Shown: positions 5,182-9,046 of the stretch, in pieces
How positions within the stretch are numbered: position 1 is the first letter of the stretch
Layout: the number at the start of each line of letters is the position of its first letter
Source of the DNA: Flavobacteriales bacterium
Lineage (GTDB): Bacteria > Bacteroidota > Bacteroidia > Flavobacteriales_F > PHOS-HE28
Reading direction: 5' to 3'
DNA: 64,000 nucleotides
NCBI GenBank assembly: GCA_019638115.1
Contig: JAHBUK010000003.1
Coordinates: 558,001 to 622,000 of the forward strand
Position numbers and translations under genes: made by a program
Notes under the pieces: model-generated
What the model was told of the DNA's origin: nothing
The model's input: the letters and a program-made list of their open reading frames with translations, nothing else
Database searches by the model: none

Positions 5182-5282
5182 TTTCGAGTAGTGAGTGGTG
5201 AGTGGGCCGTTCCGCACCATGGCCCACTCGCCACTCACTACTCGCCACTCGCTTACTCCAGCACCACCGGCATATCCTTCGG
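5182..5282. repeat. Direct repeat, inner copy (hairpin plus DUF4139 3' end)
   Basis: Second copy of the unit at 4953-5072: TTTCGAGTAGTGAG, GAGTGGGCC, GCACCATGGCCCACTCGCC, then the true 3' end of the DUF4139 gene. The inverted arms at 5184-5207 and 5221-5253 would give that gene's transcript a long terminal hairpin. Confidence 0.7.
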
Positions 5283-6857
5283 GTGTTTCACCGTGTAGCT
5301 GAAGCCAAGCTTTTTCGTAGACTTCGGTTCCAGCGTGAACTTCCACGTGAGCGTGCCTTTCTGGTCGTCGACCACAGCGCCGCCCTTGTCCTCCAGCTTC
5401 ACCTCTATCTCGCTCTGGGGGCTTAATGGATACTGATCGCGCACTTCGAGATCCACGGCCGTGCCTTTGGTGTTGCGCACGGTAAGGTCCCAGCCGATGG
5501 TGACCGTGCGCTTGCTACCAACGATGGCTTTCTGGTCGGTGGTCTTGCGCTTCACGCGTTCCACAACCACGCCTTTGTCTCGGCCCAACGAGATCTCCAA
5601 GGTATCCTTGGGTACATCCAGTTGCAGGTAGCTCTGGCCCACGAAAGTGCCCTCGAAGAACACGTTGGCCTCGCCGGGCAGCAGGTTCAGGTCTTCCCAG
5701 CCCGTGGTGCGTGCGTAGAGGAAGGCATCGCGGTCCAATTTGGGCGTCGCATAGTGCTTGTAGGTGGCTGCGATGTTGTGGCTCTTCACACCCACGGTGT
5801 GCGCCTTGCCATCGCTCGGTATGGTGAAGGGCGTTTCGATCACGAACTCGGTGGTGGTGGTGCGGTAGGCAACGGTGTTGGCCACGGTTGTCTGCACGGC
5901 CATGTCCTCGTATTTCATGCTCATGGTTTCCGTATCGCTGTACGCATTGCTTTGCCGCGCAGGTGCCGGTGCACGGCTCATGGAAGTTTCCCGCAGTTGC
6001 ACTGGTCGTGGTATGTACAGTGTCCACGGATACAATTGCGGCATCACACCGCCGAGCGTGGGGTTGCCACTGCTGAGGCTCAGTGCCACCTTGCTCCAAT
6101 CCTCACCGGTGTTATTGGTAACCTGGGCCTTCATCAATAGTTCGATCGGTTGCCCAACGCCCTTGGCGCGCAGGTCGTAGGCCGGTATCCAACCCGCGTT
6201 CGGCACGAAGCAGCTCAGCGTGAAGCTCGCATTCACTTCCACCGCGCTGTTGATCTCCACCACCACTTCGCTGGTGGGCCGTGGCGCCTGTGCCTGTAGC
6301 TGCTGCAGTTGCTGGCGCTGCTTCTGCAGGTCCTCGTTGATGGCCACCAACTTTTCCTGTTGCGCCAGCCAGTTGGCCTTGGTCACTTTCAGCCGTTCGC
6401 GCACATAGTCGTTAACGGCGGTGAGCTGTGCCGCGGTGAGCCCGTTCTGCTGCCCGCCGATGCTGCTGTTCTTGCCCAGCAGTTGCTCCTCGTTCACCCA
6501 CACGTCCTGCATGGCCTTCTCGTAGGCGTGGTCCTTCTCCAGCTTCATGATCCGCGCCGTGATCTCCTCGATCTCCTTCTTCTTCGGGCTCTCCGTCAGG
6601 TAGTTCATCCGGTGGTTCACGCTCAGGATGGTGTATCCGCCCTTGCCGGTTACCTGTATGCTCTGCGGATCCAGTTGCTGGGGCAGTCCGGTGAAGACCA
6701 ACGTGCTGGTGCCAGCGGGTACCGATGCATTCGCAGTGCGCGCAAGCTGGGCGCCACTCAGGAAGACCTTGACCTCGGTGAGTTTGGAGGTGACGGGCTT
6801 TTCGGTGGCGTACAGGGAGGTGGCGATCAACAGGGAAAGGAGGAGGAAGGAGCGCAT
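5253..6857 (-). CDS. DUF4139/DUF4140 protein (mucoidy inhibitor A-like)
   Basis: A 534-residue exported protein of unknown biochemical role. Signal peptide MRSFLLLSLLIATSLYA, then an N-terminal DUF4140 domain (about 25-125, motif VKVFLSGAQLARTA), a coiled-coil stretch (about 125-190), and a C-terminal DUF4139 beta domain (about 200-534, motifs WIPAYDLRAKG, NNTGEDWSKV, DQYPLSPQSEIEV). The start is ATG 6855-6857; an in-frame ATG seven codons upstream would spoil the signal peptide. It is 89 bp downstream of a longer paralog on the same strand, and a remnant of a further copy follows it. Family members occur in envelope contexts, but no reaction is established. Confidence 0.85.
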   Translation of the reverse strand: MRSFLLLSLLIATSLYATEKPVTSKLTEVKVFLSGAQLARTANASVPAGTSTLVFTGLPQQLDPQSIQVTGKGGYTILSVNHRMNYLTESPKKKEIEEITARIMKLEKDHAYEKAMQDVWVNEEQLLGKNSSIGGQQNGLTAAQLTAVNDYVRERLKVTKANWLAQQEKLVAINEDLQKQRQQLQQLQAQAPRPTSEVVVEINSAVEVNASFTLSCFVPNAGWIPAYDLRAKGVGQPIELLMKAQVTNNTGEDWSKVALSLSSGNPTLGGVMPQLYPWTLYIPRPVQLRETSMSRAPAPARQSNAYSDTETMSMKYEDMAVQTTVANTVAYRTTTTEFVIETPFTIPSDGKAHTVGVKSHNIAATYKHYATPKLDRDAFLYARTTGWEDLNLLPGEANVFFEGTFVGQSYLQLDVPKDTLEISLGRDKGVVVERVKRKTTDQKAIVGSKRTVTIGWDLTVRNTKGTAVDLEVRDQYPLSPQSEIEVKLEDKGGAVVDDQKGTLTWKFTLEPKSTKKLGFSYTVKHPKDMPVVLE

Positions 6858-6946
6858 GGGGCTTATTTGGTGGGACAAAGGAAGGACATGGAACGCCGTT
6901 CAGTAAGAACCTGTACAAGCGTTGTGTCTGAAGGTTCGATCCTGGA

Positions 6947-9046
6947 TCATTCCAGCGCCAAGGGCATTGCTCGCGGGGCTTTCACGGAATAGACGAAGCC
7001 GTGTTTTTCGGTCGAGCGTGCGGGTACCACCATTCGCCAAGTGAGGAAGCCGCGATCAGAATCGACTTTGGTGGCATCATGCCCTTCCAGGCTTACGCTG
7101 ATCTCATTCCGAACAGGTACCGGTACTTGGTCCGTGATGACCAGTTCGATAGCCTCACCCTTCGTGTTTCGTACCTCAATGTTCCAGCCAACGCTTTCCG
7201 TCCGTTTGTTGCCATTGAAATGTCTGCGCGTGAACTCCTGTTCCCGCACACGTTGCACCTGCACGCCGCGATCTCGACCCAACGAGATGTCCAGCGTGTC
7301 GGTGACCTGTTCGCTGTCCAGATAGGTCTCGCCGATATAGGTGCCTTCGAAGTACAGGGTTGCCGGGCCAGGCAGCAGGTCCAGCGCATCCCAGCCGGTG
7401 GCTTTGGCGAATAGGTAGGCGTTCGGGTCCAGTTTGGGTGTGCAGTAGTGCCGGTAAACACTGGTAACATGGTGCTCCTTCACGGCCACTGAATGCCCTT
7501 GACCATCGCTGGGAATGCTGTACGGAAGCGTGATCGCGAATGCGAAGTGGGTGTTCCGTTGCCGGACGCTCACTTCAGGTTGGTGGATGTTCACCAAGCC
7601 AGTATTGATATCACCGTAGTTCGCGGGTATTCCACCGCTTATGCGATCCAGCCCATCAGCGTACACCTTGATGCCATCCACATAGTAGTAGGTATTCTCC
7701 GGTCTTGATCCACGCATGTGGATACCATCATCACTACCTCTTTTGGTCGTGCCAGATACTGTCGTGGCGATTGAGGACGCTGTTCGGCCAGGGGACTTTT
7801 GGATGTCCTCGCGTTTTAGAGTGCCACCAGAAGCTCCCCCATCGCGGTCTATCAAGGGCACCGAGTATTGCACAACTTCAAAGGCTTTGAGCTCCACGGC
7901 CGACTGTTGCAGGGCCACGTTCATTGAACTGCTGTGGATGTCCGATCGATAGGGTTGATAGCCCACATAGGAGATGCGTAGAGCGCGTCCACCAGCCGGT
8001 ATGGCGAGGGCATAGTATCCCTCGAAATTGCTGGTGGTTGTGTTAAGCACGCTGCCGTCGCTTGCAGTGGCACTGATCGATACGAAGGGCAACGCTTCGC
8101 CGGTTTGGGCATCACGTACCATACCACGCACGTCGCGAACGGCCGCATCAAAGGTCTTGTTCTCCTGCCGGATCATGGCGGGTCGATGGCCGGAATCCAA
8201 TCGCCACATTGCCAGTTGTGGCATTACTCCGCCCTGCTGGGGATCACCGGATGCCAGCTCCAGTTGTACGTTGTCCCAGTCCTCACCGCTGCTTTGGTAC
8301 ACGTTGGCCTTGTACACCAGTTCCAAGGGTGAGTTCAGGCTGTGTACCCGGATGTCGTACTGCGGGCTCCAACCAGCGCTTCGAACCACATAGCGTAGCG
8401 TGAAAGTGCTTCGAATTGCCTGGGGGACCGCCAATTCAACCAGCACTTCGCTACGGGCCTTGGGTTTGCGTGAACGCAGTTGACCCATTTGCAAGTATGC
8501 CTGTTGTGCTTCTTCGCGTAAGCGCTCGATGCGTCGTTGCCGATCATTGATCCCGGTCCGTACAGCTGTGATACGCTCCCGCAGGTAGTCGTTGATGGAG
8601 CGCAGTTGTTCCAACGTACTGCCCCGTTCACCGCCGTGTACCGACTCGTTCTTCAGTATGCGTTGTTCTTCGTTCTGTAGAATGCCGATCTGCGTCTGTT
8701 CATCCTGGATGATCTGTTCGGTCGTTTTGATCCGTGCTTCCAAGGCTTTGATCTCCGCGCTGGAGGACAACTCTGAGCCGTGGTCCAGGCGGTGTTTCAC
8801 GCTGAGGATGGTGAAGGTGCCGGTCCCGTTCACTTGAATGCTCGCTGGGTCGACCTCTTCGCTGAGGTCCTTGAACACCAGGCGCTGTGTGCCTTTGTTC
8901 AGATCCACACTTGCAGTGCGCGTGATCTCCGCACCGTTGAGGTGAACGGTGACATGGGTTATGTTGCTCTTGATGGCGTTGTCGTTCGCATGAGAAAGGA
9001 GTGCGGGGAGCAGCAGGAACAGACTGAGGGTGTATCGATAGCGCAT
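6947..9046 (-). CDS. DUF4139 protein with inserted TonB-receptor-like N-domain and plug
   Basis: A 699-residue paralog of the preceding gene. Signal peptide 1-20, DUF4140 about 25-125, coiled coil about 125-195, and DUF4139 halves at about 205-295 and 500-699. Between the halves lie about 200 extra residues: a carboxypeptidase-regulatory-like domain (VRDAQTGEALPFVSI ... ISYVGYQPYRSD) and a segment matching a TonB plug (GGTLKREDIQKSPGRTA, HMRGSRPENTYYYVDGIKV, GGIPANYGD). The barrel that normally follows a plug is absent and the DUF4139 frame resumes with ITLPYSIPSDGQGHS, aligned to TPFTIPSDGKAHT of the paralog. The frame is continuous, so it appears functional. Confidence 0.85.
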   Translation of the reverse strand: MRYRYTLSLFLLLPALLSHANDNAIKSNITHVTVHLNGAEITRTASVDLNKGTQRLVFKDLSEEVDPASIQVNGTGTFTILSVKHRLDHGSELSSSAEIKALEARIKTTEQIIQDEQTQIGILQNEEQRILKNESVHGGERGSTLEQLRSINDYLRERITAVRTGINDRQRRIERLREEAQQAYLQMGQLRSRKPKARSEVLVELAVPQAIRSTFTLRYVVRSAGWSPQYDIRVHSLNSPLELVYKANVYQSSGEDWDNVQLELASGDPQQGGVMPQLAMWRLDSGHRPAMIRQENKTFDAAVRDVRGMVRDAQTGEALPFVSISATASDGSVLNTTTSNFEGYYALAIPAGGRALRISYVGYQPYRSDIHSSSMNVALQQSAVELKAFEVVQYSVPLIDRDGGASGGTLKREDIQKSPGRTASSIATTVSGTTKRGSDDGIHMRGSRPENTYYYVDGIKVYADGLDRISGGIPANYGDINTGLVNIHQPEVSVRQRNTHFAFAITLPYSIPSDGQGHSVAVKEHHVTSVYRHYCTPKLDPNAYLFAKATGWDALDLLPGPATLYFEGTYIGETYLDSEQVTDTLDISLGRDRGVQVQRVREQEFTRRHFNGNKRTESVGWNIEVRNTKGEAIELVITDQVPVPVRNEISVSLEGHDATKVDSDRGFLTWRMVVPARSTEKHGFVYSVKAPRAMPLALE

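What the first reader, a model, noticed from the sequence alone, without database searches (positions are those of the whole stretch)
6947..9046. DUF4139 protein with a TonB-receptor N-domain and plug nested inside it
The 699-residue protein is collinear with its 534-residue neighbour except for about 200 residues inserted in the DUF4139 half. The insert has a carboxypeptidase-regulatory-like domain followed by the plug motifs HMRGSRPENTYYYVDGIKV and GGIPANYGD, but no barrel. A plug without a barrel, housed in another exported domain, is unusual. It could bind a TonB-linked partner, act as a decoy plug, or be a captured ligand-binding module.
Basis: partly seen in the sequence, partly recalled or inferred. 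Interest (0 to 1): 0.75.

Follow-up and report, generated by a model that had tools for sequence, protein, structure and literature searches.

The report
Receptor N-terminus captured inside DUF4139 protein
An exported bacterial protein of unknown function carries, in one of its loops, the front end of an outer-membrane nutrient receptor (its extra domain, its motor-contact peptide and a shortened plug, but no pore), and related bacteria have made the same kind of capture in the same loop more than once.

Summary
Window 6947-9046 (-) is a 699-aa MuiA-family protein (DUF4140 + DUF4139) with a TonB-receptor N-terminal module inside DUF4139: a SusC-type NTE domain (305-387), a TonB-box-like peptide (384-394) and plug sequence (397-488). 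It is not an assembly fusion: it lies in a genus-wide paralog group of 13 sequences. Two features change the interpretation. (1) The plug is not whole. TonB box and plug are 65% identical to the genome's own Oar-like TonB-dependent transporter (TBDT), but the conserved strand 'SAIEEVQVI' is missing, orthologs carry different further in-frame deletions, and the Pfam score only equals the cut-off. The NTE, in contrast, is conserved almost like the host core. (2) Barrel-less plugs are not unusual in this phylum. The same DUF4139 loop carries NTE and/or SusC-type plugs in other Bacteroidota, and some of these genomes also have plugs in vWA/YfbK, M56 and small stand-alone proteins. Best reading: recurrent capture of the TBDT NTE-TonB box-plug module into a permissive loop, here from the resident Oar-like TBDT. 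NTE and TonB box are kept, probably to contact TonB or another NTE partner; the plug is a shortened leftover. The contact function is inferred, not shown.

The parts
6947..9046 (-). 699-aa exported MuiA-family protein (DUF4140 + DUF4139) that carries the insert
8663..8953 (-). DUF4140 domain, residues 32-128
   Evidence: Pfam E 6e-21
8177..8401 (-). first part of DUF4139 (about residues 216-290), ending at the loop that receives the insert
7886..8134 (-). NTE: carboxypeptidase-regulatory-like domain, residues 305-387
   Evidence: Pfam PF13620/PF13715; AlphaFold pLDDT 70-81 over most of it, best match 9hfj, NTE of SusC BT3090, TM 0.82
7865..7897 (-). TonB-box-like peptide VELKAFEVVQY, residues 384-394
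   Evidence: aligned with IELKEFEVVQY of the resident TBDT; TonB box position after an NTE as in BT1763 (PMC7782687)
7583..7858 (-). incomplete plug, residues 397-488 (Pfam Plug 409-470); 11 residues with the SAIEEVQVI strand missing
6971..7549 (-). second part of DUF4139 (about residues 500-692), after the insert
5253..6878 (-). tandem paralog without the insert (534 aa from the ATG at 6857)

Best explanation
The protein is an exported MuiA-family (DUF4140-DUF4139) protein. A permissive loop of its DUF4139 domain received the N-terminal module of a TonB-dependent transporter: NTE domain, TonB box and plug. In this genus the TonB box and plug came from the resident Oar-like TBDT, most simply once, near the base of the genus (supported by similarity and tree). 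Since then the NTE has been kept as a folded domain under constraint close to that of the host. The plug has been shortened in frame, differently in each lineage, and is no longer a complete plug (shown at sequence level). The most likely working part is therefore the NTE plus the exposed TonB-box peptide, which would let this exported protein contact the C-terminal domain of TonB or whatever partner TBDT NTEs have; the plug remnant would be a spacer or leftover (inferred).
For: TonB box + plug 65% identical to the own-genome TBDT. Host plugs form one clade with the genus' TBDT plugs, excluding those of neighbouring families. 13 insert-bearing hosts form one paralog clade. NTE mean identity 57% against 60-67% for the core, but TonB box 39% and plug 28%; NTE dN/dS near the core's. 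NTE fold matches a SusC NTE. EVVQY and its surroundings nearly identical to the TBDT. An LxEVVV-like motif follows the NTE in most hosts, and a few hosts with neither NTE nor plug keep it. Precedents: TonB box VDEVVV after the NTE is needed in BT1763 (PMC7782687); the NTE-plug part of Oar without its barrel interacts with the TonB C-terminal domain (PMC6434023).
Against: No binding was tested. In the other paralog lineage of the genus the TonB box is only loosely kept (39% on average). EVVV-like motifs could be kept as part of the NTE unit without binding TonB. The NTE of this protein is much less like the TBDT's (32%) than the plug is, so NTE and plug may not have come together. The function of MuiA/DUF4139 itself is unknown.
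Confidence: 0.45

Rival explanations
1. Neutral passenger. The DUF4139 loop is disordered and tolerates anything in frame. TBDT N-termini land there because TBDT genes are numerous in these genomes, and the insert is slowly lost without doing anything.
For: Different in-frame deletions in each lineage; relaxed plug remnants in the third-paralog lineage (dN/dS 0.36-0.49); TBDTs are very numerous in some of these genomes; the loop also varies in hosts without insert.
Against: NTE conserved almost like the core across 13 hosts; SusC-type plugs of f5 hosts as conserved as their cores; the aligned plug residues of this protein and L065 also constrained (pN 0.32 vs pS 0.80).
Confidence: 0.25
2. NTE-only function. 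The NTE is the working part, binding the still unknown partner of TBDT NTEs (for instance something in outer-membrane protein assembly); TonB box and plug are leftovers.
For: The NTE is the best-kept part in all 13 genus members. Deleting the NTE of a SusC had a strong growth effect thought perhaps not to involve transport itself (PMC7782687). A chain of the F. johnsoniae BAM complex is among weak structure matches (9n2d_E, E 2e-3, rmsd 15).
Against: Several hosts of other families keep a plug without an NTE (L081, L082, L083, L051, L044), which an NTE-only function does not explain. The BAM match is too weak to count.
Confidence: 0.18
3. Decoy or ligand-binding plug. The plug folds and either binds a TBDT ligand or competes for a TBDT barrel or for TonB.
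For: SusC-type plugs in other DUF4139 hosts score well above the Pfam cut-off over most of the profile (L051, L067), so a folded plug is plausible there.
Against: In this protein a conserved strand is missing, the Pfam score is only at the cut-off and orthologs have lost other parts; AlphaFold gives no confident fold, although on shallow alignments.
Confidence: 0.1
4. Assembly, sequencing or annotation fusion of two genes.
For: None found.
Against: Intact frame; same arrangement in orthologs L065 and L066 from separate assemblies and in other families.
Confidence: 0.01

Closest known systems
MuiA family (TIGR02231; DUF4140-DUF4139)
   Same: Both domains, export signal-like start, collinear with the insert-free neighbour
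   Different: Carries a TBDT N-terminal module in a DUF4139 loop; no paper found that mentions DUF4139 together with TonB
Oar-like TonB-dependent transporter (PF13620 NTE + TonB box + PF07715 plug + barrel)
   Same: NTE, TonB-box peptide and plug motifs in the same order; 65% identity over TonB box and plug to the resident member
   Different: No barrel; plug lacks a core strand; embedded in an unrelated protein
NTE of SusC proteins (BT1763, BT3090; PF13715)
   Same: Predicted fold (TM 0.82 to 9hfj) and a TonB-box-like peptide right after it
   Different: Not attached to a transporter
Other barrel-less plug proteins of Bacteroidota (YfbK/vWA, M56 half-plugs, small NTE-plug or plug-only proteins) seen here
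   Same: TBDT plug sequence without barrel in an exported or membrane protein
   Different: Other hosts; plug complete or a half-plug; some adjacent to ECF sigma genes

Membership tests
MuiA family / DUF4139 | DUF4140 and DUF4139 over curated cut-offs; TIGR02231 over cut-off | tested here: met
TonB-dependent transporter | C-terminal 22-strand barrel | tested here: not met
   No barrel family found; the frame returns to DUF4139 and ends
TonB-dependent transporter | complete plug domain | tested here: not met
   Strand SAIEEVQVI missing; Pfam 23.9 bits = cut-off, profile 11-70 of 107 only
TonB-dependent transporter | NTE (PF13715/PF13620) before the TonB box, as in SusC and Oar | tested here: met
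   Sequence and predicted fold
TonB-dependent transporter | TonB box that binds TonB | not testable with these tools
   Peptide nearly identical to that of the resident TBDT; binding needs an experiment
Functional plug fold | confident predicted plug structure | tested here: inconclusive
   pLDDT under 35 for about 390-500, but alignments of only 6 and 4 rows and no true-plug control

The most novel reading that the evidence does not exclude
Plug-bearing MuiA proteins, with the vWA, M56 and stand-alone plug proteins, are non-receptor clients of TonB: a captured TonB box lets ExbBD-TonB, or the machinery that recognises TBDT N-termini, act on exported proteins that import nothing, a use of the Ton system for which I found no description.
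Probability: 0.2. Interest if true: 0.8.

Novelty: new variant of a known kind. Interest (0 to 1): 0.52.

Why it matters
TonB is thought of as the motor of receptors that import (or, for Oar, secrete) through a barrel. Repeated capture of the TonB-contact module by barrel-less exported proteins, at one loop and in several lineages, gives a simple testable prediction that the Ton system has other clients. It also gives the uncharacterised MuiA/DUF4139 family of Bacteroidota a concrete link to a known envelope machine, and the NTE domain of unknown function a setting where it can be studied without a transporter.

Tried and rejected
Assembly or frame artefact: rejected, since the ORF is intact and orthologs L065 and L066 in separate assemblies carry the module. 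Plug as a unique oddity: rejected. Link with the F. johnsoniae BAM complex: looked up, no link to plugs or DUF4139 found. Sequence search of the full protein against solved structures gave only carboxypeptidase D, weakly (E 0.09); Foldseek on the full model found nothing at E<=1e-3. The genome-contig scan with the full protein gave few relatives, among them a Saprospiraceae protein with NTE, LDEVVVTGY and a plug remnant. Gene neighbours of the f5 plug-bearing hosts, as far as read by eye, show no TBDT or Ton genes. Searches failed on input or availability. In one search I mistyped the first residues of the query (MKLPDRD where the TBDT has VPLIDRD); the alignment used from it lies further on.

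Full report
WHAT IS THERE. The ORF at 6947-9046 (-) encodes a 699-aa protein. It belongs to the MuiA family (TIGR02231, 257 bits, cut-off 113), with DUF4140 at 32-128 and DUF4139 spread over 216-692. Inside DUF4139 lie a carboxypeptidase-regulatory-like domain (305-387) and a Plug match (409-470) whose 23.9 bits equal the Pfam cut-off. Its tandem neighbour at 5253-6878 is collinear without the insert; the net difference is 165 residues, not 200. A third paralog (G000:C4, 645 aa) has the NTE and only scrambled plug motifs (GGVPASY, YMDGV, RIRGSRS, in an order unlike a plug's).

WHERE THE INSERT CAME FROM. The nearest sequence to the insert in the whole genome, apart from itself, is a complete Oar-like TBDT (G000:C1, 1251 aa). 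Over TonB box and plug the identity is 65% (70/107), over the NTE 32% (27/84); the NTE is closer (54%) to that of the paralog. Most of the 44 genus genomes searched have this TBDT. In a tree of the plug sequences, those of this protein and of three relatives (L016, L065, L066) form one clade (bootstrap/SH-aLRT 97/84) that groups with the genus' TBDT plugs (83/92) and excludes TBDTs of neighbouring families. Whether the host plugs are sister to or inside the TBDT clade cannot be told (AU p 0.465). On the tree of host cores, the 13 insert-bearing genus sequences form one paralog clade (98) and the 25 without insert another (94). The simplest account is one capture near the base of the genus. The contrast between NTE and plug may reflect a second source for the NTE or just weaker constraint on NTEs (TBDT NTEs 77%, TonB box + plug 89% identity within the genus).

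WHAT HAS HAPPENED TO IT. The NTE is kept: mean identity 57% among the 13 hosts against 60-67% for the core, and dN/dS close to the core's. The TonB box (39%) and plug (28%) are not. The window's protein has the fullest plug seen in the genus but lacks 11 residues including the SAIEEVQVI strand, which aligns with the IERIEVV strand of Cir- and FepA-type plugs. L065 and L066 lack other pieces, each in frame, and score no Plug match. Still, the aligned plug residues of the window's protein and L065 are about as constrained as the core (pN 0.317 vs 0.279, with pS 0.80 vs 0.67), so this is not plain decay. The alignments were very shallow, so the latter is not proof of disorder.

IT RECURS. In a sample of 395 genomes of the phylum I count by eye 89 DUF4139 proteins over 100 bits outside the window's genome; those with a long DUF4139 span were fetched. 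The same loop (after PWxL, before IPSDG) carries an NTE in at least 28 and a SusC-type plug in at least 8 (three with both). The NTE is mostly followed by an L-x-E-V-V-V motif, as in the TonB box shown for the SusC protein BT1763 (VDEVVV; PMC7782687), and a few hosts without NTE or plug still have it (L043, L045, L037). SusC-type plugs are about as conserved between hosts as the cores (L068/L069: plug 60%, N-core 54%, C-core 65%). In genome G061 the DUF4139 plug is 79% identical to that of a SusC receptor of the same genome and 73% to a plug in its YfbK/vWA protein. So there were at least two captures, from different TBDT subfamilies, into one loop.

BARREL-LESS PLUGS ELSEWHERE. Bacteroidota genomes in the sample carry plugs in a YfbK/vWA protein, in M56 peptidases (half-plugs) and in small exported proteins. 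The window's genus has a 240-257-aa NTE-plug protein directly before an ECF sigma gene in most genomes checked, also in another family; G061 has the parallel set plug-only protein, ECF-sigma-like gene, vWA protein with NTE and plug.

HOW IT MAY WORK. Shown by others: the TonB box after an NTE is needed for SusC function (PMC7782687), and the NTE-plug part of Oar without barrel interacts with the TonB C-terminal domain in a two-hybrid test (PMC6434023). In Pseudomonas, muiA is under an ECF sigma factor and rises with envelope stress (PMC10418997). Inferred: the NTE with its TonB-box peptide, displayed from a DUF4139 loop, gives this exported protein a contact to TonB or to the NTE's own, unknown partner. 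A complete, working plug is unlikely here. A passenger in a permissive loop is the main rival; core-like conservation of the NTE, and of SusC-type plugs elsewhere, speaks against it.

VERDICT. Real, recurrent, not an artefact; a new arrangement of known parts. The evolutionary part is well supported; the function is a hypothesis with a direct test.

Noticed in passing
G000:C3 about 434.8-435.6 kb; L119 2126-4570 (-); also L271-L276, L278, L279, L282: A 240-257-aa exported protein made of an NTE and a full-length plug, without barrel, is encoded directly before an ECF sigma gene (and, in G000, a membrane/TPR protein) across the genus and in one other family; possibly surface signalling by a barrel-less plug.
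   Followed up: partly
L280 939-4836 (-) (genome G061): Parallel operon in another family: 175-aa plug-only protein, ECF-sigma-like gene, 895-aa protein with NTE, plug and YfbK/vWA domains; its plug is 73% identical to the one in the same genome's DUF4139 protein.
   Followed up: partly
L185, L183, L209: M56-type peptidases (or the genes next to them) of Bacteroidota carry one or more plug second halves (VIDG...VLK..YG..G.NGVI) at their C-terminal end.
   Followed up: no
G000:C4:243652-244932 (L001): Third DUF4139 paralog of the genome: NTE kept, plug motifs present in scrambled order and replaced in relatives by a basic RRIRRQK stretch.
   Followed up: partly
L151 6850-7308 (+): Saprospiraceae DUF4139 protein with NTE, LDEVVVTGYG and only MKGSRSKSSDYYVDGQRV left of a plug.
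   Followed up: no
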